DNA of 28,651 bases, from positions 1-28,651 of the IMG/VR virus record IMGVR_UViG_3300006922_000129, one strand, 5' to 3'. Positions 4,552-25,942 of this stretch are shown here, piece after piece. The notes under the pieces were generated by a model. That model did not search any database, had not been told where the DNA came from, and saw only the letters and a program-made list of their open reading frames with translations. Made by a program: the position numbers and the translations under genes. The stretch comes from a virus. Each line of letters opens with the position of its first letter. The stretch's first letter is position 1.

Positions 4552-4739
4552 CTGTGCTTTCCTATAAACCTTTTAGCGGCATCAATTGGATTACGTAAGC
4601 CTTCATACGTCTTGTCAATAAAGCCGATATGGTTTTGGAGTTTGTTATCTAATGCTTCAATCGTTAACTGCAACTTGTCTACTTTTACATTTAACAATTC
4701 AATATCTCTTAAAAGTTTTTCTTCATTGCTTGGACTCAT
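4548..4739 (-). CDS. Small coiled-coil protein
   Basis: The 63-residue product has a heptad-like Leu/Ile/Val repeat over residues about 9-38 (LLRDIELLNVKVDKLQLTIE then ALDNKLQNH), which predicts a coiled coil, followed by a short basic tail (AAKRFIGKHR). No family is recognised. It is locked between two genes: its ATG abuts the stop of the DUF6065-like gene and its TGA overlaps the next ATG. The tight coupling and clear amphipathic helix support it as real. A role as a small oligomerising or adaptor protein is plausible but not shown. Confidence 0.7.
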   Translation of the reverse strand: MSPSNEEKLLRDIELLNVKVDKLQLTIEALDNKLQNHIGFIDKTYEGLRNPIDAAKRFIGKHR

Positions 4740-10379: not shown

Positions 10380-10408
10380 ATTATACAGTATTATAATTCA
10401 GAAGTCAA
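10380..10408 (-). promoter_or_regulatory. Strong sigma70 promoter for the uvsW operon
   Basis: TTGACT (10408-10403) and TATAAT (10385-10380) are separated by 17 bases, 11 of 12 consensus positions. The -35 box lies in the last codons of the upstream glycosyltransferase-like gene and the -10 in the 36-base gap. Predicted start is near 10373, giving a short leader with AGGAATC before ATG 10354. This is the only larger intergenic gap in this part of the map. Confidence 0.65.
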
Positions 10409-11221
10409 GTGTTTTATTGGGATTCCTTGAGATATTTCCGGCACACTCCATTCTGTGTATGCCAAATTGTTGAGCCACTGCGTTCTATCATGCAGTTTAG
10501 GATCGTTTATATTTTTTAAATCTTTTATACTAACGTCCCATGCAAGGCTACTTGGGCCAGTGTATACAGGTATGCCAGCCATTACTGCTTGAGTTGCAGG
10601 ATTACTTGACCAATTTACTACAGCATATACATCATCAAATTCTAAATCAAAATCATCATATGTGCCTGGTATTTGTTTTGGTGCTTGTACTGTTATGCCT
10701 GGAATGTTGATTTTACAACGTGGGTGTGGTCGGATAATTATTTCTTTGTCCGTATATGCTCGTATGGCGTTTACCATGTTACTTACCCATTGATTGATAG
10801 CAGGCATGTTAACCCATTGTTCGCTTTTATCATGCTGAGTACAAATTACAATCTTACTGCCGTCAGTGTTCCATGGTTTAAGTTCAAGTCCAAACTGTGT
10901 AGCACGGTCAGAATTATTATTGCCTTTAGGAAATGTAGCATCTCTGTTAATACCATTAATGCCTACCTTCCATGTAGTGCCTCTGAACAATGCACCTACT
11001 TCAAGTACAATAACTTTTTTATGTTGTTTTATAAATGTGTCCCACACGTTTTTGTTTGCTGACATTCTACCATGCCATAGTACACTCCATATAACAGCAA
11101 CATCGGCATTCATGTCATTGTACACAACTTCATGTCCTAAGTGTGCTACGCCATTAGCAAATGCTTCAAAGACAGGCTTTGAATTTAATGCACCATTGTG
11201 TGTAAACAAACCAAACTTCAC
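10391..11221 (-). CDS. Capsule-type GT-B glycosyltransferase-like protein, paralogue A
   Basis: The 276-residue product resembles the C-terminal nucleotide-sugar-binding half of capsule glycosyltransferases of the KpsC/KpsS type. Visible marks are IIIRPHPR (R164-P167), WSSNPATQAVMAGIPV (S205 to about 219), and a C-terminal WLNNLAYTEWSVPEI shared with three other genes in this window. It lacks a clear separate N-terminal Rossmann domain of usual length. It pairs most closely with the gene at 12224-13147 through a common KPW...CQ/CTQ...RxHP layout. The start is GTG 11221, overlapping the previous stop as GTGA, with GGAAAG seven bases upstream. Sugar donor and acceptor are unknown. Confidence 0.6.
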   Translation of the reverse strand: MKFGLFTHNGALNSKPVFEAFANGVAHLGHEVVYNDMNADVAVIWSVLWHGRMSANKNVWDTFIKQHKKVIVLEVGALFRGTTWKVGINGINRDATFPKGNNNSDRATQFGLELKPWNTDGSKIVICTQHDKSEQWVNMPAINQWVSNMVNAIRAYTDKEIIIRPHPRCKINIPGITVQAPKQIPGTYDDFDLEFDDVYAVVNWSSNPATQAVMAGIPVYTGPSSLAWDVSIKDLKNINDPKLHDRTQWLNNLAYTEWSVPEISQGIPIKHLTSEL

Positions 11222-12042
11222 TTGGCATCTTTCCAGTATTCTTCTTTGCGTACTCTAAATAAATCTTGAAGTTTACTTTTGCCTACTTGCTTACGAGCAC
11301 CTTTGAGATGATCAAAGTATGCACCAAGTTCTGTGTTAATCAAAGGATGTCCTTCACCTTTAACAAGATGTCCACTAAGGTCTGTAATGTTAGAGTGTTG
11401 TACTCTAATCTTCTTTAACACTTCGTCAAATACATAACTGTCATGCCATTCTTCCATTTTGAATATACCGTTGTCTGCATCTTCGTAGACACGTTCAAAC
11501 TCTTTAAGAAAATCAATAGCACCTTGTTGTTTGATATACAACGCATAGAAACCACACTCAGGCCATTTTCTACCACGTCCTAAATATGCTAACCAGTTTT
11601 GTTCTGGAAAGAAACTTACAAGTTTGTCTTGTGTAATAGGACTATGACAAACAGTATCGCCGTCAATCCATATTACTAAATCGTATTCTGTTTGCTTACA
11701 TGCATCATACACTGCATACACTTTGTTTGCAAATCTAATAGCGTCCCACTTAAACTTTTTATGCCAATCCTTTGGTCGTCTTGCTTTGATTTCTGGAGGA
11801 CATATACCATTTGCTTTAGGCTCGTCTTTCCATTTTTCTTTGAAAGCATTTAATTTTGGTAGCACTGCTTTTGCATCTACAATTTGTATTCTTTCAGGCT
11901 GTGGATTAGTAGGTGTACAATTTTCTGTGTACACAATTAAATCAATTTGCTTATCTACGTTTTGTGCAAACGTATCTATAAAACGCTGTCCATACAACTC
12001 CATACCTTCTTGATGGAATGTTGTTAATGCTAATATTTTCAT
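11218..12042 (-). CDS. GT-A type glycosyltransferase
   Basis: The 274-residue product starts with a Rossmann-like strand (MKILALTTF) and has a D-x-D metal motif in LVIWIDGDT (D127, D129), the hallmark of GT-A nucleotide-sugar transferases. The following ENWLAYLGRG and a conserved WHDSYVFDEV segment near residue 200 fit an acceptor/catalytic region. Similar proteins are common in marine T4-like phages. Family placement within GT-A is not certain. It lies between two capsule-type GT-B-like genes, and its stop is overlapped by the GTG of the next gene, so the two are probably coexpressed. Confidence 0.75.
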   Translation of the reverse strand: MKILALTTFHQEGMELYGQRFIDTFAQNVDKQIDLIVYTENCTPTNPQPERIQIVDAKAVLPKLNAFKEKWKDEPKANGICPPEIKARRPKDWHKKFKWDAIRFANKVYAVYDACKQTEYDLVIWIDGDTVCHSPITQDKLVSFFPEQNWLAYLGRGRKWPECGFYALYIKQQGAIDFLKEFERVYEDADNGIFKMEEWHDSYVFDEVLKKIRVQHSNITDLSGHLVKGEGHPLINTELGAYFDHLKGARKQVGKSKLQDLFRVRKEEYWKDAK

Positions 12043-12047
12043 TACTC

Positions 12048-12224
12048 TTAACCTTTATCTGTATTCTGTGTATATTTTAAAGCAGTTTTGCCTTTGTATC
12101 GTTTTCCACTATGAAATACATTTTCTCTTTGCCATGGCATTGCTTTATGATTTGGACACTTACATTGATATCTAAATGTAGCATCGCATTTTCTACAAAA
12201 TCTTGAATTAAGTCTACCATCCAT
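12048..12224 (-). CDS. Small zinc-ribbon-like protein
   Basis: The 58-residue product has a cluster of metal ligands, C10-x2-C13 and C21-x-C23-x2-H26 (FCRKCDATFRYQCKCPNH), then a basic tail. This could bind one zinc. The start is ATG 12224, which shares bases with the stop of the upstream gene as TAATG; a longer frame begins only at a TTG. GAGGAA lies about nine bases upstream. Function is unknown; nucleic-acid binding or a structural role are both possible. Confidence 0.6.
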   Translation of the reverse strand: MDGRLNSRFCRKCDATFRYQCKCPNHKAMPWQRENVFHSGKRYKGKTALKYTQNTDKG

Positions 12225-13147
12225 TATAAAAAATTCCTCATGTGTCTCCAACAACTACCGTCCTTTAGTTCTTGTAGTGTCCAATGGCATTGTGCAAGTT
12301 TCTCAAGCCATGGTCCTCTATCAAATTCTTCTGGTGTTGCAAGATATTTAAAATTATAGTTAGCAACATCTTTTGCTTGACTACGTCCTGGGTCTGTTAA
12401 GAAAATAGGAACACCTTGTATAGCGGCAATGATCGTTGGACTGCTGTTATGCCCAATACATAATCTTGCTCCTTGTAAATCATCAAATATAGATTTACTA
12501 TGACTAACGCCAACTTTTAGATCTCTTATCTGTGGCTCGTATGTGTCTTTGTGTTTGTCACCTGGATGGAATCTTACAATAATAGGAGCATCTATGTGTT
12601 CTCTAATACGTTCAACTGTTTGACGTAACCATTGTAATACATTTTGTCCTTGCATACTCCAACCGTTATTACGTTGACAACAAACTAAAATGTGTCCGTT
12701 GTTTTGTATTCTCCAAGGCTTAACTTCTATCTTTAATGCTGTTTTCATTTTCTGCCAACGCAATTTGTCGACATGTTCTGGGGAGTTACAGTACTCGCCT
12801 GTGTTGGCAAATATACCATCATAACTGTAACGGAGATATGTGTGACTGTTGTTCTTATCAAATGCAAGAAACAAATTACTGTCAACAATAATGCAACGCT
12901 TTCCACGTTTTAATTGATTGTCATAAACTTGTCTACGTAATTTTAAGTGTGGTGTTTGTTTACTGTTAGCATGTACAAAGCCTTGTATTACTGCAACGTC
13001 TGTGTCTATAGGATGATAAGAGTCAACAATTAATCCTCTGTCCCCTATAAGATTTACACCTTGAATAAAATTTTTAAGTAGTGCTGGCTTCTCTGGATTT
13101 GAATTCCCAGGAGGAATTACTTTCATATACGATGCAACTGTTAACAT
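12224..13147 (-). CDS. Capsule-type GT-B glycosyltransferase-like protein, paralogue B
   Basis: The 307-residue product is the longest of the four related genes. It shows VRFHPGDK (R192-P195), IGHNSSPTIIAAIQGVPIFL (about 231-250) and the shared C-terminal WLEKLAQCHWTLQELKDG. An early Rossmann-like segment TDVAVIQGFVHANSKQ is visible near 50-65. KPWR and CCQRNNGW mirror KPWN and CTQHDKSEQW in paralogue A, so A and B form one pair. GAGGAG precedes ATG 13147, which overlaps the stop of paralogue C. The donor is unknown; the RxHP and GxP motifs support a nucleotide-sugar-dependent transferase. Confidence 0.65.
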   Translation of the reverse strand: MLTVASYMKVIPPGNSNPEKPALLKNFIQGVNLIGDRGLIVDSYHPIDTDVAVIQGFVHANSKQTPHLKLRRQVYDNQLKRGKRCIIVDSNLFLAFDKNNSHTYLRYSYDGIFANTGEYCNSPEHVDKLRWQKMKTALKIEVKPWRIQNNGHILVCCQRNNGWSMQGQNVLQWLRQTVERIREHIDAPIIVRFHPGDKHKDTYEPQIRDLKVGVSHSKSIFDDLQGARLCIGHNSSPTIIAAIQGVPIFLTDPGRSQAKDVANYNFKYLATPEEFDRGPWLEKLAQCHWTLQELKDGSCWRHMRNFL

Positions 13148-13965
13148 AGATTAAACTCCTCTACAATATCTATTGCCCTGCCGTTACGCAGTTCTGTTGT
13201 TGTATAGTTACAATATGCTAACCAATTTTGCCACTGTAAAACTTTTTCTTCGTCTGCATAATAAGGATTTTCTATTTCAGCAATAGTCTTTGTACATAAC
13301 TCATCAGCCGCACCTGGTGCAAGTGCTACCGCAGGAACTCCTGTACTAATTGCTTCTGTTGCCGCAATACTATTGTATGTTACAACACAATGTATATTGT
13401 CGTTTATAAGTTGCATAGGTACACTAAATTCTCCTACACGTTCTCTACGTAATCCTTTATCACGAATAATAATTTCTCTGTCAGTATGTTTTTTAATCTC
13501 TTTTAATGTTTCATCTACCCATGTATCTCTATCAATGTTATAAAAATTACAAGGCTTTGCTGATGGAGTAACAACAAGGATAGGACCATCAGCCTTGCGC
13601 CAGCCTCGAAATCTAATATTGCTCATTGCCATAGGTATCTGTCTAAATCTATCATCTGGAAGATCATAACGTGGCGTCATGTGTTGCACGTTGTTCTTAA
13701 CTACACGATGATAGTCTTTGCGTTTGTTCAAGTTACCCATGTAACCTGTGTCAATATAAAAGTAATCACGCTTTTGCTTTTCACAAATGCGTATTGCTTT
13801 ACGTTCAGTCATACCTCTAATAACAAGGGGTGTTGTTGAGTTATCGTCCTTTAATACTTTGTGTCCTGTCGGCTCTACGTAGGTGAAAGATTCAGTTAGA
13901 CACTGAACAATCATATCGTCTGGATCAGTTACAAAGCACTTATCTCTTTTCTTAAATGTTACCAT
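13141..13965 (-). CDS. GT-B-like protein, paralogue C
   Basis: The 274-residue product keeps the family layout but has diverged in the basic motif: IIIRDKGL at 165-172 replaces the RPHP of paralogue A. VVTYNSIAATEAISTGVPAV at 194-213 corresponds to the donor-binding loop, and WQNWLAYCNYTTTELRNG to the common C-terminal motif. FYIDTGYMGNLNKRKDYHRV at about 69-88 is shared with paralogue D (FFHLDNGYIGNWNYKR), making C and D a second pair. AGGAG stands close to ATG 13965. Loss of the HP residues may change the donor or remove activity. It is separated from the upstream gene by 18 bases. Confidence 0.6.
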   Translation of the reverse strand: MVTFKKRDKCFVTDPDDMIVQCLTESFTYVEPTGHKVLKDDNSTTPLVIRGMTERKAIRICEKQKRDYFYIDTGYMGNLNKRKDYHRVVKNNVQHMTPRYDLPDDRFRQIPMAMSNIRFRGWRKADGPILVVTPSAKPCNFYNIDRDTWVDETLKEIKKHTDREIIIRDKGLRRERVGEFSVPMQLINDNIHCVVTYNSIAATEAISTGVPAVALAPGAADELCTKTIAEIENPYYADEEKVLQWQNWLAYCNYTTTELRNGRAIDIVEEFNLC

Positions 13966-14451: not shown

Positions 14452-15130
14452 TTGTATACATCATGTCTGTTAAATATTTCTTCCATACATCATCGTATGA
14501 ACAATGTCTATAGTTTTCAAACCAAGGACCGCCTTCTGTGTAGTGCAGTGCCTTCGGGGTTCCGTCTTCAGGTTCTTGGTACCAATCAACAAGCCAGTTC
14601 CATTCGTGACTAATTTGTCCTACTTCCTCGTCCTTGAGCCAACTAAATCTATGAAAGTATTTTCCATCGTAGTTAGGATTGTTTACACTGTCAATTGTTA
14701 CTGCTTGGTTACTTGGGTGTCCGCAATTCCATAATACAACACTTGACCAGTTCTTGCGTGGGTATTGTGTTTGTACTTGTCCGTCCATCTTTGTTCCAGG
14801 CTTAGGTGTGTAATCGTGTTGGGCACACATAACAGCATACTTGTCGTCTGCAAGATCAAATAAGTTTTTTACATTTTCTGTAAACACAATGTCGCTGTCA
14901 ATAAACAATGCCCAGCCATTATAATTCATTAAGTGTGGAATAAGGAAACGTGTAAATGTAAATTCTGTTGAAGCAAGTTTGTCTTCACCTCTCCAATACA
15001 ACTTGTCATTTCTTAACTCGTTTTGTTTTAAAGGAATTACTTCTGCCGTTGGGCATAGTGACTCAATGCTGTGCCTACATACTTGGTAAGCAATATCTTC
15101 TCTGGTATCGTATCCTACAAAAATTTTCAT
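14429..15130 (-). CDS. GT8-like glycosyltransferase
   Basis: The 233-residue product opens with KIFVGYDTREDIAYQV, a nucleotide-binding start typical of GT8/GT-A proteins. It has the D-x-D motif in LFIDSDIVF (D78, D80) and a later LHYTEGGPWF (H196 onward), where the His could be the second metal ligand. This layout is common in bacterial and phage glycosyltransferases. The substrate is unknown. Its ATG overlaps the stop of the nucleotidyltransferase-cupin gene (TAATG), so the activated sugar made by that gene could be a donor; this is inference. Confidence 0.75.
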   Translation of the reverse strand: MKIFVGYDTREDIAYQVCRHSIESLCPTAEVIPLKQNELRNDKLYWRGEDKLASTEFTFTRFLIPHLMNYNGWALFIDSDIVFTENVKNLFDLADDKYAVMCAQHDYTPKPGTKMDGQVQTQYPRKNWSSVVLWNCGHPSNQAVTIDSVNNPNYDGKYFHRFSWLKDEEVGQISHEWNWLVDWYQEPEDGTPKALHYTEGGPWFENYRHCSYDDVWKKYLTDMMYTNDDTGKN

Positions 15131-15888
15131 TATTCTTTTCTTTCTATATCTTCTTCAATACATTTTTCGCCATACTGTACCTCAAGTATGTGACAATGTT
15201 CTTGCGTATTGTTAATACCTTTGTGCCACACATTTTCATTTATCGTATAAGAACGATTTGCATCTACTGTTACTTGGTCGTCTCTGTTATCATAGTTAGT
15301 CTCAATAACGCAGGTACCTTTTAACACATACCAGTTTTCTGATCTATGTTTATGTCGTTGCATTGACAAACTTTTGCCAGGCTCAATAACAAGTTCTTTA
15401 ACTTTGTAACCTGGTTTGTCGTCAAGCACTCTGTACCAACCCCAGTTACGTATTGTCTTGGGTGTCTTCCATTCGTCGAGTATCCAACTACTTGAATTCT
15501 TTTTATCTTCTCCACCTACACCAAATACAAATTCAACTTGCGGATGATCTCCGTAAATTTTGTATTCAGGAGTTGTAAAATCTGTCCTGTCACCACCGTT
15601 AGCAAATACTATTGTTCCTACTTCAGTTGACATAGTATGGAATATTGCATGACATGCAGTATCATCTTCGTCATCAAATCCTATAACTTTATCAACACAT
15701 TCAAGTTCTTTGATAATAGCAAGTCGTTCCTTGAACGGCATAAACGGTCGACCTTTCTTATTTGTCAACCATTCGTCTGAATTGATTCCTACTATAAGTT
15801 TATCTCCAAGTTTCTTTGCCTCTTTAAAGTACGCCAAATGACCTGAATGTAGTGGATCAAAGCCACCTGTAACTAATACACACTTCAT
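15130..15888 (-). CDS. Nucleotidyltransferase fused to an MPI-like cupin
   Basis: The 252-residue product has two domains. Residues 1-140 form a HIGH-type nucleotidyltransferase of the RfaE2/glycerol-3-phosphate cytidylyltransferase kind: GGFDPLHSGHLAYF with H14/H17, and KNSSSWI at 130-136 in place of the usual KxSSTxI. Residues 145-240 form a cupin like that of type II mannose-6-phosphate isomerase: RNWGWYRVL, then MQRHKHRSENWYVLKGTC with H179, H181 and E184, and VWHKG with H222. The pair would activate a sugar or polyol phosphate and isomerise or sense it. No ribosome site precedes ATG 15888. The gene begins a divergent pair. Exact substrates are not known. Confidence 0.85.
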   Translation of the reverse strand: MKCVLVTGGFDPLHSGHLAYFKEAKKLGDKLIVGINSDEWLTNKKGRPFMPFKERLAIIKELECVDKVIGFDDEDDTACHAIFHTMSTEVGTIVFANGGDRTDFTTPEYKIYGDHPQVEFVFGVGGEDKKNSSSWILDEWKTPKTIRNWGWYRVLDDKPGYKVKELVIEPGKSLSMQRHKHRSENWYVLKGTCVIETNYDNRDDQVTVDANRSYTINENVWHKGINNTQEHCHILEVQYGEKCIEEDIERKE

Positions 15889-15950
15889 AAATGTATTTAA
15901 TTTAGTGCCAGATAACTTTGTTTATTCCTGGTTGCTCAATAAGTAATTGC
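15889..15950. other. Divergent intergenic region
   Basis: This 62-base AT-rich gap separates divergent genes. On the minus strand ATTAAATA ends five bases before ATG 15888; on the plus strand AATAAGTA ends five bases before ATG 15951. Both resemble weak versions of the T4 late box TATAAATA, but the spacing would put the transcript start at the ATG. I see no strong sigma70 site and no hairpin. Confidence 0.3.
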
Positions 15951-16544
15951 ATGGACACATTAAATTTATTCGTTAACAGCATTAGTAGAGTTACATTTTC
16001 AAAGCACAAAGAAGTCAAAAAATTATTTGATAGAATTGTTGAAGATTACCAAAAGCAAACCAATAATACAAATATACAACATATTAATACTTGGCAGAGC
16101 AAAGATAACTTTCATACTAACAATGCGTTCAAACACATCAGTGAAAGCGACGATGTTAAGTCATTTGTCAAGGAGATTACTGAAAAGTTTGAAGTTAAAC
16201 AAGGACAGCACATTGCTATTACCAGAGCATACGTTCAAACAGTAATGCCGGGTGGTTGCTTGACTAAGACTAAAAAGACAGATAGTTTCTATTCAGGTAT
16301 GTACTTTGTAACCAGCGATCCAAAAAGCGGAGGACTTGTAGTAGACAATCCTGTAAGCGAATATTACTTTAGTAAGATTCCAGTAGAGAATAAAAATGCA
16401 TATAACAGTTGGCAAACATTCTTACCAATGCCAGAGGGAGAAATGTATTTTATTCCAGGCTATCTTGACCTAAGTACTACGCCTAATATGAGCGAGAAGC
16501 CGTTAGACATCATTACTTTCGATCTCGAAATAATCAAAAAATGA
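15951..16544 (+). CDS. Degenerate 2OG-oxygenase-like protein
   Basis: The 197-residue product follows the fold pattern of PF13759-type oxygenases but not its active site. The strand pair YSGMYFVTSDPKSGGLVVDN matches the family's sGvYYv..p..gG.l.f.dP, and MPEGEMYFIPGYLDLST matches p.eG.l.iFP.wL.H. The positions expected to hold metal histidines carry TKTKKTDS and DLST, and PLDIITFDLEI replaces the co-substrate Arg stretch. Loss of all ligands suggests a pseudoenzyme or ligand-binding protein. The start is ATG 15951; a longer frame begins only at TTG. Its stop overlaps the next ATG (ATGA). The plus-strand setting with a radical SAM gene suggests joint function. Confidence 0.6.
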   Translation: MDTLNLFVNSISRVTFSKHKEVKKLFDRIVEDYQKQTNNTNIQHINTWQSKDNFHTNNAFKHISESDDVKSFVKEITEKFEVKQGQHIAITRAYVQTVMPGGCLTKTKKTDSFYSGMYFVTSDPKSGGLVVDNPVSEYYFSKIPVENKNAYNSWQTFLPMPEGEMYFIPGYLDLSTTPNMSEKPLDIITFDLEIIKK

Positions 16545-16966
16545 CGCACGAAGAAGTCCGCAAACTTATAGAGGACGCAAACCAAAATAAATTTAGTAAC
16601 GTTTTGTTACTACCTTTAGGCGATTCAGTATTAGACAAGCACATAGAACAATGGTTATTGGAACGTGTAAACGTGGTTAAAATGCCCGTATATACCCCGG
16701 ATTCATTAGAGTATGCTGTTGCTCGTACAGACTATGCTTTGTGTACTGTAGACGCTTTAAAATGCGTCTTAGACGCCAGTATACCTATGTTTATCAACAT
16801 ACATGATAATGAGATTGACATAGTAAATAACGATAATAGATTTGTGTTTGATCCATTTAGAAATGAAGACAAAACCAAAATTGATTACACAAGTGTATTA
16901 GATTTAGCAACCAAATGTCTAAAGCAAGACTTGGATAAACATTGGATACCGTATTATGAAATGTAG
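16541..16966 (+). CDS. Hypothetical protein in the radical SAM operon
   Basis: The 141-residue product has a mixed alpha/beta composition with no recognised domain. LLLPLGDSVLD near 23-33 and an acidic NIHDNEIDIVNNDNRFVFD near 85-103 are its most distinctive parts. It is translationally coupled at both ends: its ATG overlaps the previous stop, and the next ATG lies 11 bases before its own stop. This places it between a degenerate oxygenase and a twitch-type radical SAM protein, so it may be a partner or substrate carrier, which is inference. Confidence 0.6.
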   Translation: MTHEEVRKLIEDANQNKFSNVLLLPLGDSVLDKHIEQWLLERVNVVKMPVYTPDSLEYAVARTDYALCTVDALKCVLDASIPMFINIHDNEIDIVNNDNRFVFDPFRNEDKTKIDYTSVLDLATKCLKQDLDKHWIPYYEM

Positions 16967-17891
16967 TGCATTTTGGAATCACACTAATATAAGAAGTGGC
17001 AACAGGGTCTATCCTTGTTGCAGATTCAAACGTTCTATTGACGTGTTTGACGGAGATGTTGACAATGTATTACACAGCGATGCATACAAAGACTTACGAG
17101 AGCAAAGTGCCAAAGGTGAGTTTATCAAAGGTTGTGAAAAGTGTTTCTATGAAGAAAAGATAGGACACAAAAGTTTACGTGAGGAGTTCAACGAGAAATA
17201 TACAATGGACAAAGTTGAACTAAAGTTTCTTGAAATTGGTTTTGATAACTTGTGTAATTTAACTTGTGATGGTTGTAATTCAGAATTCAGTACAAGTTGG
17301 ATTGTAAAAGAAAAAGAAATTTATGGTGCACCGAAACACAAGTTGATGGAAATTGATGACGTTACAAATGTACCAGAGGCACTTGAAAAGATATTGTTTC
17401 TTGGAGGCGAGCCGTTAATTACTAACAGACATTTGAAACTGTTACGTCAAGTAAAAAACAAAAACAATGTTGAGGTCATATACAATACTAACGGAACGTT
17501 TATACCTAATGATGAAGTTGTTGAAGAACTACAGCATTATAAGAAAGTAACTTTTATATTAAGCATTGACGGTATAGGTGAACTTGGAGAACGTGTACGT
17601 AGCGGAACTAAATGGCCTGATGTAGTTAAGTTTATTGACTGGGTGTACAACAACATGTACAGATTAGAATTCAATTCTGTGTTACACAAAAACAATTACA
17701 TGGGACTAAAAGACTTACACGACTTCTGTACAAGGTTTGAAGCACGTTGGTATATTAATGTTTTAACATTTCCATTTGATTTAGATATTAAAGGACTTGA
17801 CTTAAATGCAAGGAATGAAATTATCAACAACGCAAAAGAGTTGAACCTACCTAACAAAGATTTTATTATTAATCATTTACAAAAGAATTAA
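16956..17891 (+). CDS. Twitch/SPASM-type radical SAM protein
   Basis: The 311-residue product has an N-terminal Cys-rich auxiliary cluster region (C3, C21, C22, C60, C63; YPCCRF and GCEKCF) and then a radical SAM core with C100-x3-C104-x2-C107 (CNLTCDGC) and a GGEP motif in LFLGGEPLI near 149-157. This layout, auxiliary cluster before the core, is known from phage and bacterial twitch-domain radical SAM proteins. It would bind a catalytic [4Fe-4S] cluster and generate a 5'-deoxyadenosyl radical. Substrate is unknown. Its 3' end overlaps the convergent exostosin-like gene by 23 bases. Confidence 0.85.
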   Translation: MKCSAFWNHTNIRSGNRVYPCCRFKRSIDVFDGDVDNVLHSDAYKDLREQSAKGEFIKGCEKCFYEEKIGHKSLREEFNEKYTMDKVELKFLEIGFDNLCNLTCDGCNSEFSTSWIVKEKEIYGAPKHKLMEIDDVTNVPEALEKILFLGGEPLITNRHLKLLRQVKNKNNVEVIYNTNGTFIPNDEVVEELQHYKKVTFILSIDGIGELGERVRSGTKWPDVVKFIDWVYNNMYRLEFNSVLHKNNYMGLKDLHDFCTRFEARWYINVLTFPFDLDIKGLDLNARNEIINNAKELNLPNKDFIINHLQKN

Positions 17892-19026
17892 TCTTGTGTA
17901 ACAGTTCTACAGGCTGTTTCTGCCTAAACAAGTTTAAGTAATGTTCTCTATTATAATCTAATATATCATTAAGTTCATTGTACATGTTTTGCAGTTCATG
18001 TATGTTATAACTGTTTAGTTTGTCAACTTCAACCATTGCCATTGCAAGTCTTTTTGTAGGATCTTTTTCGTTGTCATACGATTCATCTATGAGTTGACTA
18101 AAGGTCATAAAGCCAAGTTCACGTAATAGTGCTAACGTTCCTTTCAACCCAACAACAATAAACGGGTGCTTGTACAAGAAGCACTTCAATGCTTTTTCTG
18201 TAAATGCTTGTCTATTGTCGTCCCAAAAGTCGCCTTCAGTAATAATACTAAAGTAACTTTCTTTGTAATATTCATCTGCACTTGGCAAACTTCTTGACAT
18301 GGATTTGTACGTAACTTCGTTTAAATCTAACTCAATAGGTAAGTTATCTTTTAGTAATCCTACAAAGTCATCTGACAGTTTCCATAGTCCATGTAAACCT
18401 TTGTCAAGATACTTTCTGTGTTCTTGTTGTGTGTTATTGCCATTGAACACATGCTCATATGCACCAAGTGGACAACTTAGGTATGTGTGTTTAGCAATGT
18501 CATTCTTTAGCAAGTGATGTGTTACTTGTAGTCTATGCATACGTTCTTGTCTATTCAAACACAAGAACTTTTTCTTACGTAGGTTACTGTTACCATTCCA
18601 ATCTTTGTTAAGATGATTGCGTATATCAATGCCATCATACCTATCAAGATGTAACTGTACGTTAAAATATATTTTGTTCTTTGTGTTAAGAAGTTTGTTG
18701 TTTGTTAGTATTACCCAGTCAACAATATAAGGATTGTCCTGTACAGTTTTTTCTACCAACGCAAGAAATGCGTTGTCTGTAAGTCCTTCGTATGAGTCAT
18801 CGATAACAAGAAAGGTTGGTATTTCATACGTTTTAAAAAAGTTAGTAAATGTTTCAAATGTGTAATCATTGTCCCCTACATATTCAAAGAATACTACAAG
18901 TTTATCTTGATCCTCGAGTACTTTATCATTGTGTCCTTCAAACTCAATAATACCTTTGAAGTTCTCAATAAACGTACCGAGACTTCTGGAATTACTGTCC
19001 ATTGTTATTAAAGGAATCTTTTTCAT
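17869..19026 (-). CDS. Exostosin-like putative glycosyltransferase
   Basis: The 385-residue product has motifs of the phage/bacterial exostosin-like (GT47-related) set: FLCLNRQERMHR at 154-165, YFSIITEGDF at 258-267, FTEKALKCFLYKHPFIVVG at 275-293, and LGFMTFSQLIDESYD at 304-318. The E-x-x-F and FTEK-HPF blocks fit a donor-binding lobe. The first 130 residues form a separate N-terminal lobe without clear motifs. Such genes are common in marine phage genomes, but sugar and acceptor are unknown. Its ATG overlaps the stop of the next radical SAM gene (ATGA). Confidence 0.65.
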   Translation of the reverse strand: MKKIPLITMDSNSRSLGTFIENFKGIIEFEGHNDKVLEDQDKLVVFFEYVGDNDYTFETFTNFFKTYEIPTFLVIDDSYEGLTDNAFLALVEKTVQDNPYIVDWVILTNNKLLNTKNKIYFNVQLHLDRYDGIDIRNHLNKDWNGNSNLRKKKFLCLNRQERMHRLQVTHHLLKNDIAKHTYLSCPLGAYEHVFNGNNTQQEHRKYLDKGLHGLWKLSDDFVGLLKDNLPIELDLNEVTYKSMSRSLPSADEYYKESYFSIITEGDFWDDNRQAFTEKALKCFLYKHPFIVVGLKGTLALLRELGFMTFSQLIDESYDNEKDPTKRLAMAMVEVDKLNSYNIHELQNMYNELNDILDYNREHYLNLFRQKQPVELLHKINSFVND

Positions 19027-19886
19027 ATTAATTTTACATTCTTAACCACTGCTTCTTCTTGTGGTTTTAGTTTTGGATTAGCAGGACACATTGCACAAAT
19101 ACTGTGTGGCTTGAAAATGTTTTTAACAAATTCTTCAAGTTCGCTTTCTTGTACATCAATGTTAAGTCCTTGGTAATCTACATATGGTTTCCAATCAACA
19201 TCGTCAAGTTGCTGTGCTTTACCTAAGTATGTACGCACCATACTAATAGGCGGACACTTGTATAACTGTCCTTTGTATATTATAGGATATATGTTTACAC
19301 CACATGCTTTATAACTTGCTTCAGGATCTTTGTCAGTCCAAGGTTTTAGTTTGCCGTTGATTGTTTGCCTATAATCATACCAGCCACCTTCTGTAGGATC
19401 AGTAACTTCTACTTCAACATCGTCTTGCTTGTGTGCAATATTACTAACCATTGTCCATTTGCCTTTGCTGTAAAAAGCATTCCATAAATTAGTTTCAATA
19501 AGTTCTCTAACCTTAGGATTTTTATTATGTAAACTACAACTAATCTTTGCTCTACCTATTTTCTTAAGGACCTTTAGTATGTCCGGACGCTTAGGTAATA
19601 GGAACCCGTTAGTATAAACTTCAATAACTGCATGATCAAATATACGTCTTGCTTCTTTTAGTATATCATATATGCGTGGGTGTAACAATGGTTCGCCACC
19701 AATGATAGTAACATGGTCTGGGTCAAGACGTTTGCCCCATGCTTCCATATTACTAACAATGCCATCAAATGATTCTACAAAAGGTAAGTTGTGATCAATG
19801 AACCTATCGCAACCTGGACATGCCAGATCACAACTTGTCGTGATCATGTATTCAAGATTTGGTATGTGATAACCGCGTTTACTCAA
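19023..19886 (-). CDS. Radical SAM protein with C-terminal Cys cluster
   Basis: The 287-residue product has the radical SAM triad C19-x3-C23-x2-C26 (SCDLACPGCDRF) and GGEP in TIIGGEPLLHP near 61-71. C-terminal cysteines (ACGVNI, YKCPPIS, and ICAMCPANP near residue 265) could ligate an auxiliary cluster in SPASM fashion. It differs from the twitch-type protein by having its extra cysteines after the core. I place the start at TTG 19886, since GGAAAG lies five bases upstream and the preceding residues NLEYMITT belong to the first strand; ATG 19847 would cut into the core. It overlaps the amidinotransferase stop by eight bases, linking the two genes. Confidence 0.85.
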   Translation of the reverse strand: MSKRGYHIPNLEYMITTSCDLACPGCDRFIDHNLPFVESFDGIVSNMEAWGKRLDPDHVTIIGGEPLLHPRIYDILKEARRIFDHAVIEVYTNGFLLPKRPDILKVLKKIGRAKISCSLHNKNPKVRELIETNLWNAFYSKGKWTMVSNIAHKQDDVEVEVTDPTEGGWYDYRQTINGKLKPWTDKDPEASYKACGVNIYPIIYKGQLYKCPPISMVRTYLGKAQQLDDVDWKPYVDYQGLNIDVQESELEEFVKNIFKPHSICAMCPANPKLKPQEEAVVKNVKLI

Positions 19887-20940
19887 AGTAACTTTCCAAT
19901 GTGCCTTTACGTTTCGTATCTAAAGTAACACAATGGAAACCACCACTCAATGTACGTGCTTGACGCATTGGTAATGCTATTGATTCAATTCCCCATTTAT
20001 CTAATTCTTTACGCAATGGTTCTTGATTCTCATCACAAATTACAAGTTTCTCATTAACACTCATAAAGTTCAAACCAATATACTTACTGCATGGCGAAAC
20101 GTTGTTCGGCAAGTTAGTACCAATATCATGTACCTTATCACCTGGGAAGAAAATCTTATCCCAGTCTTTAAAGATAGGTGGGTACCAGTCTTTGTTAATT
20201 CTATCTCCGTTAAACAACACAAGTCCAGGACGTAAAGGAATTACAGTACTGTCAAAATGTGAATAACTATAAAACTTTTCAGCAAGATGAATTTTATATC
20301 CTAATGGTTCTAATATAGTTTTTAACCATTGTCCACCAAGCAATGTACCTGAGTTACTAACTTGATATAATAAGTCTTTACCAAGACGCACAACATTAGG
20401 TGCATCAAATACAATCTCATTATTTTTAAGTGTAGGAATACTTAGGTCTTCAAGTTGATAAATGTCATCAAGCAGTCTTGGACGAGGCGCACTAATCCAT
20501 TGTGAACCGCCTGCCATTGCTTCATATAAAAATTCTCTGTATGCTGTTGTTTCGTATTGTCTTGCTCTCATTGCACCCGGACAATCAATAATAACATTGT
20601 TAAGTGGCAATAATAAATCTCGTGGACAGTATGTGTACCAGCCTGTAGTTTTCCAATCTGGCGATCCAAATTCTACGCTGTGATCAATTGATTCAGGTCG
20701 TCTAACTTTAACTCCAAGGTTAGTTAAAAGTTTAGCAAGACCGTCAAGATCTTCATTTGCTTCGTCAATTACCCACTTAGGACTTGGTCCTTCTAAGTCT
20801 TTGATGTGTTCGTATTTGCAATCTGCAAAGCCAAAACTATGTGTTGATTTATCTACTGTTGGTATTCTTGCGTGGTCTGCAATACCTACAAAACATTCTT
20901 CTAATGGATCCCAGTCGTTGTGACTGCTTACTACTGTCAT
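19879..20940 (-). CDS. Glycine-amidinotransferase-like enzyme
   Basis: The 353-residue product fits the amidinotransferase (guanidino-transferring pentein) fold. D179 in FDAPNVVRLGKD, H228 in YSHFDSTVIPLR and C337 in GGFHCVTLD line up as the catalytic Asp-His-Cys set. The family moves an amidino group from arginine to glycine, inosamine phosphates or lysine. Here the acceptor is unknown; an amino sugar would suit the neighbours. The size is close to bacterial StrB-type enzymes. AAGGAG precedes ATG 20940. A TTTAAATA box about 24 bases before the ATG could be a late-type promoter. The 3' end overlaps the radical SAM gene. Confidence 0.9.
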   Translation of the reverse strand: MTVVSSHNDWDPLEECFVGIADHARIPTVDKSTHSFGFADCKYEHIKDLEGPSPKWVIDEANEDLDGLAKLLTNLGVKVRRPESIDHSVEFGSPDWKTTGWYTYCPRDLLLPLNNVIIDCPGAMRARQYETTAYREFLYEAMAGGSQWISAPRPRLLDDIYQLEDLSIPTLKNNEIVFDAPNVVRLGKDLLYQVSNSGTLLGGQWLKTILEPLGYKIHLAEKFYSYSHFDSTVIPLRPGLVLFNGDRINKDWYPPIFKDWDKIFFPGDKVHDIGTNLPNNVSPCSKYIGLNFMSVNEKLVICDENQEPLRKELDKWGIESIALPMRQARTLSGGFHCVTLDTKRKGTLESYFE

Positions 20941-21009: not shown

Positions 21010-21300
21010 TTATCCGCCTGCGAAAACGTTAGAACTACCAGCCGCAACACTTGTGCAACCTGATATAGCATCGCCGACTCTGCCTGTTCCTACGTTGTTT
21101 GTGAATACTGTTGTTGACCCTACTGCTATTGGTGCAGAGTGTGATGGACAAGGTACACCTGGAAGTAAGTGTCCTGTGTTGTCATCGCCTTGTCTTGAAA
21201 CAGCAATGTTATTAGCAAATACATTACCAGAGCCTACTGCTCTTGTCATTCCGCTACAGTGAGCAACGTCTGCGTCACCTATTCGAGTTACTGCTGGCAT
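21010..21300 (-). CDS. PAAR-domain spike-tip protein
   Basis: The 96-residue product is a single PAAR domain: MPAVTRIGDADVAHCSG, then three related Gly-rich hairpins (GSGNVFANN, GSTTVFTNN, GSSNVFAGG). H14, C15, H44, C51, H54 and C82 are candidate zinc ligands. In T4 the corresponding gp5.4 caps the central spike of the baseplate and sharpens it for membrane piercing. Length and pattern agree well with the family. It starts at ATG 21300 with AGGGAGAA upstream, overlapping the small upstream gene by 26 bases. It is a structural gene placed among accessory enzyme genes. Confidence 0.92.
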   Translation of the reverse strand: MPAVTRIGDADVAHCSGMTRAVGSGNVFANNIAVSRQGDDNTGHLLPGVPCPSHSAPIAVGSTTVFTNNVGTGRVGDAISGCTSVAAGSSNVFAGG

Positions 21301-21496
21301 ATGAATTCTCCCTCTTTATTAATTCTTGTAACTTTATGTTCCAAGATTTCATTTCCTCATGTTGTTCATCAGAGTGTGGTGGCTCTGGAACTTCTGGTGC
21401 AAACTTAATTATATAATCAAACTTGTCTGGTATAGAATCAAACTCTGTGTACGTTTCTAATTTACCGTCTGTCTTAATTATAAATTCACTTGCCAT
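21275..21496 (-). CDS. Small hypothetical protein before PAAR
   Basis: The 73-residue product begins with a two-strand segment (MASEFIIKTDGKLETYTEFD), continues with DKFDYIIKFAPEVPEPPHSD, and ends in a helical, charged stretch. No family is recognised. It overlaps the PAAR gene by 26 bases and the aminotransferase-like gene by 11, so it is probably cotranscribed. A small baseplate or spike accessory role is possible by position only. Confidence 0.55.
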   Translation of the reverse strand: MASEFIIKTDGKLETYTEFDSIPDKFDYIIKFAPEVPEPPHSDEQHEEMKSWNIKLQELIKRENSYASSNSNR

Positions 21497-22352
21497 TAAC
21501 TATGTCACCAATTAGTTCGCTAATACAAACTCTGTTAACCTGACTGCCTCTGTTGTAATCTTTCCACTTATCGTCTCCGATTCCAAACATAATACAGTCT
21601 GTTGGTAACAAGTTTTTATCTTCAATTGCTTGGTTGTAAGCACTTGTATATTGTTGCCAATTCCAATCAACTGAAAACATTTGTATCAGGCTATATGCAA
21701 TACTTATGTCAATTCTGTTATTCATTTCTACTGAGTTAAACACATCAATACCGTCATCAGTGTCTATACGTTCGCAACGTACTCCTACACGTAAAAACTC
21801 AGCACCATAAAATGCTTTACTAATACTAAACGTAATAGTTTGTACACATTTCCATTGTGCTAAATCTACATTAATATTTTTTGTACAAGGGTAATATGCA
21901 AAGTCAAGTAGCACAGGAATTTCTAAAGTATTACATTGGTTTAAGTAGTACTCCATATCAACATGCTGTCTACCATGGTCGCTAAAAGGTACACTTATGA
22001 TTAATACGTCATCATGATCAAGTGGTTCGTCTTCAATGTATTCCCAATCACAACCATGTTTCAAACATGCACTGTGATACATAAATTCGCCTTTGAAAAA
22101 TCTAAAGCGTCTTGTTTTGTGTCTAAAATAAAAGTGATCAAATGCTTGTACAGTTCCACAAACTAACTTTTGACTTGGAAATAAATCAAGACCTGACAAT
22201 GTATTATTACCACTTGCACTAATCCAATCCATAAATGCTTTAATAAATGTTGATGGTAATTCTTCATTGTATAAATCACTTACAGGGTTAAGTCCTGTAA
22301 TAAACTTCTTAATTGCATTATCTGTTACGGGTTTAGCGCCTCTTAAATTCAT
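21486..22352 (-). CDS. PLP-dependent aminotransferase-like protein (fold type I)
   Basis: The 288-residue product carries the landmarks of class I/II aminotransferases: PVLLDFAYYP with D150 for the PLP ring nitrogen and Y153, then TFSISKAFYGAEFLRVG with K179 as the Schiff-base lysine and R188. An earlier LVCGTVQAFDHF (about 63-74) could supply the phosphate-binding loop. Full family members are 350-400 residues, so the small domain is shortened, notably at the C-terminus. The substrate may be a keto sugar or an amino acid. Its ATG lies 20 bases inside the end of the upstream oxygenase gene. Confidence 0.7.
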   Translation of the reverse strand: MNLRGAKPVTDNAIKKFITGLNPVSDLYNEELPSTFIKAFMDWISASGNNTLSGLDLFPSQKLVCGTVQAFDHFYFRHKTRRFRFFKGEFMYHSACLKHGCDWEYIEDEPLDHDDVLIISVPFSDHGRQHVDMEYYLNQCNTLEIPVLLDFAYYPCTKNINVDLAQWKCVQTITFSISKAFYGAEFLRVGVRCERIDTDDGIDVFNSVEMNNRIDISIAYSLIQMFSVDWNWQQYTSAYNQAIEDKNLLPTDCIMFGIGDDKWKDYNRGSQVNRVCISELIGDIVNGK

Positions 22353-22851
22353 TCTTTACTCCAGTTACTTGCATTGTGTACTTAGGCGACATTCCACTAT
22401 TAGAACTTAGATGTGGTTCATTTTTTTCGATAATAACAGCATCTCCACGTTTCCAATTTGTAATAGGAGTCTTGTTTATTTCAAAGTAATGTCCGCTTTG
22501 CCAATCCTCAAGGAATATATTAACACGGATACACCCATCAGGGTGAACATTGTTATGCTTGGCAAACATGTAAAATGTATCAACATGTTCTGGTAAAACT
22601 TGTCCTGGTGCTTGTTGCATTAGTGCTATTGTGCATCTATCAAACAACGTCTTACTAAAGTTTATAAAATTATAAGTTTCAGGAAATGCTTGTTTGTATT
22701 TTGTATTTTCTGTTGTGTAACCTGCAAGATGATATTTTTTATTTTGTGATTCAAAAGCAGTTGCTCTACCTTCATCTGTTACATTGTCTTTGTTTTCCCA
22801 AAGAACACTCTTATATGGTAGGTCGGGTATGTTTAATCTTATTTGGTCCAT
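22333..22851 (-). CDS. 2OG-Fe(II) oxygenase/Asp-hydroxylase-like protein
   Basis: The 172-residue product has a double-stranded beta-helix pattern: PGQVLPEHVDTFY with H89-x-D91, a core strand CIRVNIFLEDWQSGHYFEI, GDAVIIEKNEPHLSSN with the distal H147, and a basic K157 in MSPKYTMQV where an Arg would be expected. This fits aspartyl/asparaginyl beta-hydroxylase-like members of the 2OG family, with a Lys replacing the usual Arg. Substrate unknown. It overlaps the next 2OG oxygenase gene by 13 bases, so two oxygenases are made together. Confidence 0.7.
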   Translation of the reverse strand: MDQIRLNIPDLPYKSVLWENKDNVTDEGRATAFESQNKKYHLAGYTTENTKYKQAFPETYNFINFSKTLFDRCTIALMQQAPGQVLPEHVDTFYMFAKHNNVHPDGCIRVNIFLEDWQSGHYFEINKTPITNWKRGDAVIIEKNEPHLSSNSGMSPKYTMQVTGVKNEFKRR

Positions 22852-23585
22852 GGCTTATCGTAGGGTACCTTTTCTTTATCATCAAACCAGTACAGACTTC
22901 TGTGTGGCGGATGTTTATCATCATGTTTAGCATTACTAACATAATAAAACAAACGTAATGCTTTTCTACTTGTATTTTTTGGATTTGTCATTGGGTCTGG
23001 ATATCCATGAAATGCAAAGTTATCATAACTCCATATAACAGCGTTACCATTACCAACAGGAACTTTACTGTGTACAGTTTTTCTTTCTTTGTCGTAGAAC
23101 TGTAACTGTCCGCCCCATTCTTCTTTCCAATCATCATTAAGATATATTACTAAACTTAACATACGATGTAATCTTATTTGCTCGTTCCAATTGAAATCAC
23201 AGTGTACTTTTAAACTATCACCTGGAAGTGACTTTACATATCCTGCACCAATTAAGTGAGGATCAGGTATAAGGTCAACAGTGTCAGTAACTTCTTGTAA
23301 CCATTTAATAAATGTAGAACTGTGTAGTGCATCAATAACTGCATCTTGTACAGGTGTTTTTGTAACGTCATTATACTCGTACATACACGAACCTGCTCGT
23401 GTAAAATGTTTACAATCTTCAAGTGGAACATTGTCTAACTCTTTAGCCATTGCACTAACAATATCCTTAGGAATAAAATCCTCAAGTGTTAGTAAACTAT
23501 AACTTGGATGACTACGATATGTCTTTTGTAATTCGTATGGGTCAGTGAAGTTTTCTATAATATGTTTAACAAGTTGTTGTTTCAT
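22839..23585 (-). CDS. 2OG-Fe(II) oxygenase (prolyl 4-hydroxylase type)
   Basis: The 248-residue product has H128-x-D130 (KVHCDFN), the strand RMLSLVIYLNDDW, GGQLQFYD, GNGNAVIWSY with distal H193 (FHGYPDP), and R207 or R211 for 2-oxoglutarate. The YLN(D)DW and GG-L-FY pattern is diagnostic of the P4H-like 2OG-FeII_Oxy_3 branch. Residues 1-60 form a helical cap. It likely hydroxylates a peptide or glycan. Start ATG 23585 overlaps the stop of the methyltransferase-like gene (ATGA). Together with the genes at 3973, 5445 and 22333 this makes four apparently intact oxygenases. Confidence 0.88.
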   Translation of the reverse strand: MKQQLVKHIIENFTDPYELQKTYRSHPSYSLLTLEDFIPKDIVSAMAKELDNVPLEDCKHFTRAGSCMYEYNDVTKTPVQDAVIDALHSSTFIKWLQEVTDTVDLIPDPHLIGAGYVKSLPGDSLKVHCDFNWNEQIRLHRMLSLVIYLNDDWKEEWGGQLQFYDKERKTVHSKVPVGNGNAVIWSYDNFAFHGYPDPMTNPKNTSRKALRLFYYVSNAKHDDKHPPHRSLYWFDDKEKVPYDKPWTK

Positions 23586-25245: not shown

Positions 25246-25942
25246 TCTTTGCTCCTAAATGCTGTGTTAAACTTTCTGAGTTTATGTTAATACCAATAGA
25301 GTAGAATGGGTGTAGTCGTGCCACTGGTACATTTGTTGATGATAGTTCTAATAACTTAGACCCAATTTGTTGATCAGCCGCTACAACATAACCGTGTTCA
25401 GCAACAAAGTCTAACAATTTTTGTGCGGCTTCTGGTTTAATAATGTAACTCCAAGCACCTCTAAAATAATTACCTACATACTTTAGAGTACGTTTACCTT
25501 TTGCATGTATGTTATGATATGGTCCTACTACAATATCTTCTTTCATGCTTTGTTCAACTGCGTTATTGTATGCACCACTGTAAGGATCATACTGATCTAA
25601 TTTACATACGTGCTTAAATTTTGTAAGTATATCTTCTGGCAATGGTCTAATAAAGTATCCGTCGTGTTCAAGAATAAGATAAGGTGTATTACTTTCAACA
25701 CATTCTTTCCATAGTCCGTAATGACTTAGAAAGCAACCAAGCACTCCTAAACGTCCTTTTTTAACTTTGCTTATAGATGTAATACCGTACTTTGCACAAG
25801 CAATGTTAAAGTCATTGCCGTTGACAGCATTGAACTGTTCTACTTTAATTCCAAACTTGTTTGCTTGTGCAACACACTCAGCGGCCATTTGTACACTGTG
25901 AGCGTTGTCCTGTAAACATATAATCTTTGCTTTATAATCCAT
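25229..25942 (-). CDS. GT25-family-like glycosyltransferase
   Basis: The 237-residue product resembles LPS-type GT25 enzymes: GCFLSHYGLWKECVE at 69-83, LILEHDGYFIRPLP near 89-103 where E92-x-D94 stands for the usual E-D-D motif, RGAWSYIIKPEAAQKLL at 162-178, and AADQQIG at 189-195. GT25 members transfer galactose or glucose in LPS or collagen-like glycosylation. The H93 in place of D is a mild change. It overlaps GT-B-like paralogue D by 11 bases, so both are made from one transcript. Confidence 0.8.
   Translation of the reverse strand: MDYKAKIICLQDNAHSVQMAAECVAQANKFGIKVEQFNAVNGNDFNIACAKYGITSISKVKKGRLGVLGCFLSHYGLWKECVESNTPYLILEHDGYFIRPLPEDILTKFKHVCKLDQYDPYSGAYNNAVEQSMKEDIVVGPYHNIHAKGKRTLKYVGNYFRGAWSYIIKPEAAQKLLDFVAEHGYVVAADQQIGSKLLELSSTNVPVARLHPFYSIGININSESLTQHLGAKSEQEK

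What the first reader, a model, noticed from the sequence alone, without database searches (positions are those of the whole stretch)
15130..20940. Possible biosynthetic cassette of sugar, radical and amidino chemistry
In about 6 kb lie the nucleotidyltransferase-cupin, oxygenase-like protein, two radical SAM proteins, an exostosin-like transferase and an amidinotransferase. The radical SAM gene at 19023 overlaps the amidinotransferase. This mix resembles aminocyclitol or modified-sugar pathways and may make a guanidino-sugar for virion, surface or DNA modification.
Basis: inference. Interest (0 to 1): 0.7.

Follow-up and report, generated by a model that had tools for sequence, protein, structure and literature searches.

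The report
Phage cassette for guanidino-sugar chemistry
A large marine phage carries a conserved set of enzymes that probably adds an amino group and then a guanidino group to a sugar-like building block, a chemistry best known from streptomycin-type pathways, but neither the product nor where the phage puts it has been shown.

Summary
The genes are real and form a conserved viral module. 19879-20940 encodes an amidinotransferase whose best solved match is StrB1 of streptomycin biosynthesis (305 bits; AGAT 190). In 91 distinct viral pairs the two genes always share a strand, and in 58 the gap is -60 to +100 bases. Around them recur a small 2OG-Fe(II) hydroxylase (22333-22851), two radical SAM enzymes and a GT-B glycosyltransferase; all six genes show purifying selection. 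A sugar setting is supported: 50 of 59 aminotransferase clusters have a GT-B or nucleotide-sugar-type gene in the locus, and in a 356-kb phage contig the aminotransferase is followed directly by the same nucleotidyltransferase-cupin fusion as at 15130. Against it, 9 of 59 have none. Corrections: the 15918 'oxygenase' lacks its iron ligands in all 11 relatives aligned; 'exostosin-like' means only a GT-B fold. Best guess: oxidation, transamination, guanidinylation, glycosyl transfer. Product and target (virion, surface, DNA) are unproven. A radical SAM/amidinotransferase module in Campylobacter phages was described in 2010; the aminotransferase-centred form was not found in my literature searches.

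The parts
22839..23585 (-). 2OG-Fe(II) oxygenase (PF13640); part of the operon in the nearer relatives
   Evidence: PF13640 E 1.3e-14; family in 16 of 51 representative loci
22333..22851 (-). small 2OG-Fe(II) hydroxylase of the Asp_Arg_Hydrox type, core of the module
   Evidence: PF05118 E 1.6e-4, just under cut-off; H89, D91, H147 kept in 71 of 71 rows; family in 48 of 51 representative loci, within 5 kb of the amidinotransferase in 46 of 50
21486..22352 (-). short (288 aa) fold-type I PLP enzyme, aminotransferase-like; core of the module
   Evidence: model pLDDT 90.6; Foldseek best HisC E 9.8e-13; VIA Z 22.2 to 20.8 over the 50 rows; K179, D150, R188, R274 in 53 of 53 rows
21010..21300 (-). 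PAAR protein, lies between PLP enzyme and amidinotransferase in this phage group only (with ORF 21275-21496)
   Evidence: PF05488 E 2.1e-6; found in 6 of 61 first-seed viral loci
19879..20940 (-). StrB-type amidinotransferase (arginine amidino donor inferred)
   Evidence: 1BWD E 8.6e-90, 304.8 bits; triad D179 (94 D, 11 E), H228 (105), C337 (104, one gap) in 105 rows
19023..19886 (-). radical SAM enzyme with four extra conserved C-terminal cysteines (one auxiliary cluster likely); 8-base overlap with the amidinotransferase gene
   Evidence: PF04055 52.7 bits; C19, C23, C26, C195, C211, C264, C267 in 40 of 40 rows
17869..19026 (-).
   Evidence: model pLDDT 87.5; VIA Z 12.8 with phage HY126 GT and H. 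pylori fucosyltransferase
16956..17891 (+). radical SAM enzyme with N-terminal twitch domain, opposite strand
   Evidence: NF033640 210.9 bits, cut-off 170; family in 37 of 51 representative loci
16541..16966 (+). 141-aa protein of unknown function between the radical SAM and the oxygenase-like gene
   Evidence: no convincing family match
15918..16544 (+). 2OG-oxygenase-like protein without iron ligands, probably not a standard oxygenase
   Evidence: phrog_81 E 1.6e-11; ligands absent in 11 of 11
15130..15888 (-). nucleotidyltransferase (HldE C-terminal/cytidylyltransferase type) fused to a ManC-type cupin; likely sugar activation
   Evidence: PF01467 E 5.2e-17, PF01050 E 3.1e-21; same fusion directly after the PLP enzyme in L141
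14429..15130 (-). GT8-like glycosyltransferase, neighbour
   Evidence: PF01501 31 bits, cut-off 24.3

Best explanation
A phage-encoded tailoring pathway that puts a guanidino group on a sugar or cyclitol and attaches the product to a larger molecule. Proposed order: the 2OG hydroxylase and/or a radical SAM enzyme oxidises a sugar-like substrate to a carbonyl; the PLP enzyme turns it into an amine; the StrB-type amidinotransferase moves the amidino group of arginine onto that amine; the GT-B enzyme (and other glycosyltransferases nearby) transfers the unit, which the nucleotidyltransferase-cupin may activate. Most likely acceptor: a glycan on the virion (tail) or the host surface. Shown: the genes, folds, conserved catalytic residues, linkage and purifying selection. 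Inferred: every substrate, the order of steps, the arginine donor, the acceptor and the benefit to the phage.
For: StrB1 is the best solved match by more than 100 bits; residues that face glycine in AGAT (N300/M302, numbering recalled) are replaced: position 225 is S/F/A/D and position 227 is A/S/G/T in 103 of 105 rows. PLP enzyme and amidinotransferase: 91 of 91 distinct viral pairs on one strand, 58 within -60..+100 bases, 89 with the PLP gene upstream within 5 kb. Core repeated across 51 representative loci that were chosen for holding both. Sugar setting: of 59 PLP-enzyme clusters 45 have the GT-B family, 16 an epimerase, 10 a carbamoyltransferase, 6 an HldE-like gene, 2 a UDP-sugar dehydrogenase, 50 at least one. 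In the 6 clusters without amidinotransferase in the locus the PLP enzyme still sits with GT-B plus epimerase, UDP-sugar dehydrogenase or the nucleotidyltransferase-cupin. Amidinotransferase paralogs in the 343-kb record lie beside a UDP-sugar dehydrogenase or a GT-B and carbamoyltransferase. dN/dS 0.06-0.24 in six genes, three comparisons each.
Against: 9 of 59 clusters have no sugar-type gene in the locus, among them compact operons (L029, L045, L262, L263) beside tail-fibre genes and the bare pair L140. The PLP enzyme is class I/II-like, not the DegT type that makes scyllo-inosamine in streptomycin (recalled), and its closest folds by VIA include arginine hydroxylases, tied within 1 Z with many others. 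No inositol or sugar-alcohol dehydrogenase or kinase was found among the 30 of 42 window ORFs scanned with Pfam. Radical SAM matches to aminocyclitol enzymes are weak (BtrN E 0.0048). The PLP enzyme occurs without amidinotransferase in several large records (5 of 16 searched have none). One genome contig (L299) has the two genes convergent.
Confidence: 0.5

Rival explanations
1. The module makes a non-protein guanidino amino acid or tailors a peptide or protein (capreomycidine/enduracididine-like arginine chemistry, or modification of tail-fibre residues): hydroxylase, PLP enzyme and amidinotransferase act on amino acids, radical SAM enzymes on peptides.
For: RohP and MppP arginine hydroxylases head or join the VIA list and GntC is in the Foldseek list; Asp_Arg_Hydrox-type oxygenases include amino-acid hydroxylases (recalled); the twitch radical SAM profile also touches peptide maturases; modules next to a T4 gp9/10-N tail-fibre protein (L029) and a Mtd_N-domain family in 12 of 51 loci.
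Against: Fold ties do not separate these enzymes; sugar-type genes in 50 of 59 clusters; StrB1 is the nearest solved amidinotransferase. No search for a precursor peptide was made.
Confidence: 0.17
2. DNA hypermodification: the pathway decorates a modified base with an amino or guanidino group or a sugar to evade restriction.
For: The GT-B model aligns with phage HY126 GT and T4 AGT/BGT (Z 12.8 to 11.2); Campylobacter phages with a comparable module have DNA that resists restriction enzymes (PMC2853527 passages).
Against: Thymidylate-synthase-family genes (which include the enzymes that make hydroxymethyl bases, recalled) in 3 of 16 large carrier records; the hydroxymethyl-uracil kinase family in 0 of 16, though the control was silent too; records are not known to be complete. 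Restriction resistance in some phages has another known cause, 7-deazaguanine (PMC6884629, listing and abstract start only).
Confidence: 0.12
3. Ordinary auxiliary metabolism: a glycine amidinotransferase that makes guanidinoacetate/creatine or ornithine for the infected cell.
For: Viral K00613/GAMT annotations exist (PMC11360552 and PMC8226683, passages).
Against: AGAT is a far weaker match than StrB1 (190 against 305 bits) and the glycine-side positions differ; the tight pairing with a PLP enzyme is not explained.
Confidence: 0.08
4. The product is a free small molecule, for example an antibiotic-like or signalling compound, not a decoration.
For: The enzyme set resembles natural-product tailoring; StrB1 makes an antibiotic precursor.
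Against: GT-B and other glycosyltransferases in the loci suggest transfer; exporters and assembly genes were not looked for specifically.
Confidence: 0.08

Closest known systems
Streptomycin (streptidine) pathway, amidinotransferase StrB1 with its aminotransferase StsC
   Same: Full-length match of the amidinotransferase to StrB1 (1BWD); an amine-forming PLP enzyme precedes guanidinylation; a Streptomyces plasmid relative (41% identity) sits beside a DegT aminotransferase and a streptomycin-biosynthesis gene.
   Different: The phage PLP enzyme is class I/II-like and short, not DegT; no cyclitol dehydrogenase or kinase seen; radical SAM and 2OG enzymes instead.
Interchangeable radical SAM / glycine amidinotransferase cluster of Campylobacter phages CP220 and CPt10 (Timms et al. 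2010, PMC2853527)
   Same: Amidinotransferase directly followed by a radical SAM gene, with sugar-nucleotide-transferase-like genes after it and a PAAR gene nearby.
   Different: Amidinotransferases 24-29% identical; the PLP family A1 was not found in the CP220 and WX1 stretches, although WX1 has another annotated class I/II aminotransferase.
Synechococcus phage S-SCSM2R amidinotransferase region
   Same: Amidinotransferase (39.7%), radical SAM (26.1%), 2OG oxygenase, glycosyltransferases and an annotated aminohydroxybenzoate-synthase-like PLP gene within a few kb.
   Different: PLP gene of another annotated type; family A1 not found there.
2-deoxystreptamine-type radical SAM dehydrogenase BtrN plus aminotransferase
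   Same: Logic of radical oxidation followed by transamination.
   Different: BtrN match is weak (E 0.0048); no evidence of the same substrate.

Membership tests
StrB / inosamine-phosphate amidinotransferase group | full-length homology with StrB closer than to AGAT | tested here: met
   304.8 bits StrB1; 202 HsvA; 195 SxtG; 190 AGAT
StrB / inosamine-phosphate amidinotransferase group | catalytic Asp-His-Cys | tested here: met
   D179 94 D and 11 E, H228 105 of 105, C337 104 of 105 with one gap
StrB / inosamine-phosphate amidinotransferase group | acts on an aminocyclitol phosphate | not testable with these tools
   needs an assay
Streptidine pathway | DegT-type aminotransferase plus cyclitol dehydrogenase and kinase alongside | tested here: inconclusive
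   PLP enzyme is class I/II-like; others not seen in 30 of 42 ORFs scanned, but the record is a fragment
Glycine amidinotransferase (AGAT) | Asn300/Met302 pair at the acceptor site (recalled) | tested here: not met
   225 is S and 227 is S in the window; Met at 227 in 1 of 105 rows, Asn at 227 in 1, none with Asn at 225
Fold-type I PLP enzymes, class I/II | fold, Schiff-base lysine, Asp to the ring nitrogen, phosphate and carboxylate arginines | tested here: met
   K179, D150, R188, R274 in 53 of 53; roles by analogy
Fold-type I PLP enzymes, class I/II | transaminase (not lyase or oxidase) activity | not testable with these tools
   fold matches tie across activities
Radical SAM superfamily (19023 and 16956) | CxxxCxxC | tested here: met
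   40 of 40 rows and 43 of 44 rows
Exostosin (GT47) | sequence family match | tested here: inconclusive
   no Pfam, NCBIfam, PHROG or PDB sequence match; fold GT-B only
2OG-Fe(II) oxygenase (ORF 15918) | HxD/H...H iron ligands | tested here: not met
   absent in 11 of 11
2OG-Fe(II) oxygenase (ORF 22333) | HxD...H iron ligands | tested here: met
   H89, D91, H147 in 71 of 71
Campylobacter-phage radical SAM / amidinotransferase module | amidinotransferase directly followed by a radical SAM gene | tested here: met
   window 8-base overlap; CP220 and WX1 annotation
Campylobacter-phage radical SAM / amidinotransferase module | shares the PLP family A1 | tested here: not met
   no A1 match at E 0.5 in L064 and L065 stretches

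The most novel reading that the evidence does not exclude
Jumbo phages of sea and fresh water run a virus-specific streptidine-like assembly line that makes positively charged guanidino-sugars and puts them on tail fibres or other virion parts, tuning receptor binding or shielding the virion; radical SAM and amidinotransferase paralogs within one genome give phage-specific variants.
Probability: 0.15. Interest if true: 0.87.

Novelty: new variant of a known kind. Interest (0 to 1): 0.62.

Why it matters
Phages decorate virions, surfaces and DNA, but guanidinylated sugars are not among the decorations that my searches turned up (open-licence PMC only). A conserved, selected enzyme pair found in at least hundreds of viral contigs (300 PLP-enzyme relatives, 509 amidinotransferase relatives before the list limits) makes the question directly testable: express two enzymes and look for a guanidinylated product. 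It also gives a function-bearing frame to the radical SAM/amidinotransferase cluster of Campylobacter phages, unexplained since 2010.

Tried and rejected
Chance neighbours in a hypervariable region: rejected by linkage and selection. Creatine-type metabolism: kept only as a rival. Exostosin as a specific assignment: not supported beyond the GT-B fold. Cyanophage host: psbA in 0 of 30 carrier records, most of them fragments; gp23 in 4 of 30; the recombinase at 27395 is closest to jumbo phages of 337-490 kb such as Phosso, Atu_ph07 and CBB. Specific substrate for radical SAM 19023: best PDB entry 7WZV carries only a domain name and no paper was found for it. Bacterial origin: pattern scan with the PLP family in genomes gave no relative, yet the amidinotransferase scan (5 loci) led to two genome contigs, L299 (filed as Bdellovibrionota) and L301 (filed as Synechococcus lacustris), that do hold the PLP family; both are short (13.7 and 3.7 kb) and may be phage sequence, which I did not test. 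So 'virus-specific' is likely but unproven. Biases: only the best 80 loci of each scan were kept; the three seed sets share many contigs; the PLP profile A1 came from amidinotransferase loci; the 51 representative loci were chosen for holding both genes; loci under 10-11 kb were dropped before the counts. Pieces of one gene can count twice. VIA list ties mean that families not listed are not excluded.
Full report
What the window is. The window is a 28,651-base virus record, 36% G+C. Its recombinase at 27395 is closest to jumbo phages, and 4 of 30 related viral records hold a T4-type major capsid gene. So it is very likely a fragment of a large T4-related phage; the host is unknown.

The observation. 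ORF 15918-16544 looks like a 2OG-Fe(II) oxygenase by profile, but all 11 aligned members of its family lack the iron ligands. ORF 17869-19026 has no sequence match to a known family; its model is a GT-B glycosyltransferase in which fucosyltransferase, phage DNA glucosyltransferases and exostosin align at Z 12.8 to 10.8, while Foldseek gives no clear match (best E 0.025). The radical SAM gene at 19023 overlaps the amidinotransferase gene by 8 bases, and that exact overlap recurs in 17 of 23 distinct relatives where the two are adjacent.

What was missed. Upstream of the amidinotransferase lie a PLP enzyme (21486-22352) and a small 2OG hydroxylase (22333-22851). The PLP enzyme has no Pfam or PHROG match and only a weak NCBIfam (E 0.0081) and PDB sequence match (E 0.076), but a 19-sequence alignment gave a confident model (pLDDT 90.6) with an aminotransferase fold (HisC E 9.8e-13; Z 22.2 to 20.8 over the 50 listed entries). 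The lysine, aspartate and arginines expected at the active site are invariant in 53 rows. In the window a PAAR gene and a 73-aa ORF sit between it and the amidinotransferase; PAAR is found in 6 of 61 first-seed loci, and in many others the two genes overlap.

Linkage. A scan with the amidinotransferase gave 61 viral loci: the PLP enzyme is in 57, the twitch radical SAM in 47 and radical SAM 19023 in 48 by tblastn. Three profile scans kept the best 80 loci each. PLP seed: 65 of 80 have the amidinotransferase (22 of 29 clusters). Amidinotransferase seed: 75 of 80 have the PLP enzyme (21 of 25). Twitch radical SAM seed: 73 of 80 have the amidinotransferase and 71 the PLP enzyme (26 and 25 of 30). 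Of 91 distinct pairs all share a strand, 89 have the PLP gene upstream within 5 kb and 58 lie within -60..+100 bases. In 51 representative loci picked for holding both genes, the 22333 hydroxylase family is in 48, twitch radical SAM in 37, radical SAM 19023 in 26, GT-B family 17869 in 23, and 35 if the homologous family f7 is added. Six genes compared three times each give dN/dS 0.06-0.24. The seed sets overlap and favour close relatives.

The amidinotransferase. Among solved structures it is nearest to StrB1 (305 bits), then HsvA (202), SxtG (195) and AGAT (190). Four bacterial relatives are 42-46% identical; among plasmids the best are annotated inosamine-phosphate amidinotransferase (45% and 41%), one of them in a streptomycin-like gene group, the other beside SIS-domain, SDR and aldehyde dehydrogenase genes. 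The catalytic residues are kept in viral proteins, with Glu in place of Asp179 in 11 of 105 rows.

Sugar setting. Of 59 PLP-enzyme clusters, 50 have at least one of GT-B, epimerase, carbamoyltransferase, HldE-like nucleotidyltransferase or UDP-sugar dehydrogenase in the locus, 32 if GT-B is left out; 9 have none. The six clusters without amidinotransferase all have GT-B plus another such gene. In the 356-kb contig L141 the PLP enzyme is followed directly by a 256-aa nucleotidyltransferase-cupin fusion like that at 15130. In the 343-kb record of L140 there are four amidinotransferase genes: one beside the bare PLP partner, one after a UDP-sugar dehydrogenase, one overlapped by a GT-B gene and near a carbamoyltransferase and four radical SAM genes, and one more without an assigned neighbour. 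No random-locus control for sugar genes was run, so enrichment is not measured.

Mechanism. I propose oxidation, transamination, guanidinylation, activation and transfer. Only the parts and their linkage are shown. The target is open. Hints for the virion: a Mtd_N-type family in 12 of 51 loci (one member scanned) and a 2,699-aa gp9/10-N tail-fibre protein beside the compact operon of L029. Hint for DNA: GT-B likeness to phage DNA glucosyltransferases; against it, thymidylate-synthase-family genes in 3 of 16 large records and no hydroxymethyl-uracil kinase family in 16, with a silent control.

Prior art. Timms et al. 2010 (PMC2853527, passages) described clusters of five radical SAM genes with a putative glycine amidinotransferase that are exchanged between Campylobacter phages CP220 and CPt10, and left their function open. 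The related paper PMC3322345 (passages) does not mention amidinotransferase. Viral glycine amidinotransferase or GAMT appear as annotations (PMC11360552, PMC8226683, PMC10259446; passages). My searches found no description of the PLP enzyme-amidinotransferase module; the library lacks most subscription papers and preprints.

Verdict. The finding is real, broader than reported and partly mis-assigned in detail. The guanidino-sugar reading is the best supported of several, at about even odds.

Noticed in passing
G031 (343,632-base viral record behind L140); L309, L310: Four amidinotransferase genes and about nine twitch radical SAM genes in one phage record, four of the latter in tandem.
   Followed up: partly
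L131:4241-4870, L128, L136, L143: A 209-aa thiamine-enzyme-like protein (E1_dh) follows the PLP enzyme directly where the amidinotransferase is missing from the locus, with an epimerase upstream.
   Followed up: partly
window 15918-16544: Oxygenase-fold family that has lost its iron ligands yet is kept across relatives.
   Followed up: partly
window 21010-21300: PAAR gene placed inside the operon between PLP enzyme and amidinotransferase in one phage group only.
   Followed up: partly
window 3973-6080 and 22839-23585: Several further 2OG-Fe(II) oxygenase genes and methyltransferases in the same window.
   Followed up: no
L299:1348-3412: Genome contig filed as Bdellovibrionota with amidinotransferase and PLP enzyme convergent, unlike the viral pairs.
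   Followed up: no
window 9089-10354, 10391-13965, 25932-26714: Several proteins of 260-421 aa with no family match; the sequence look of some suggests capsule-type glycosyltransferases.
   Followed up: no
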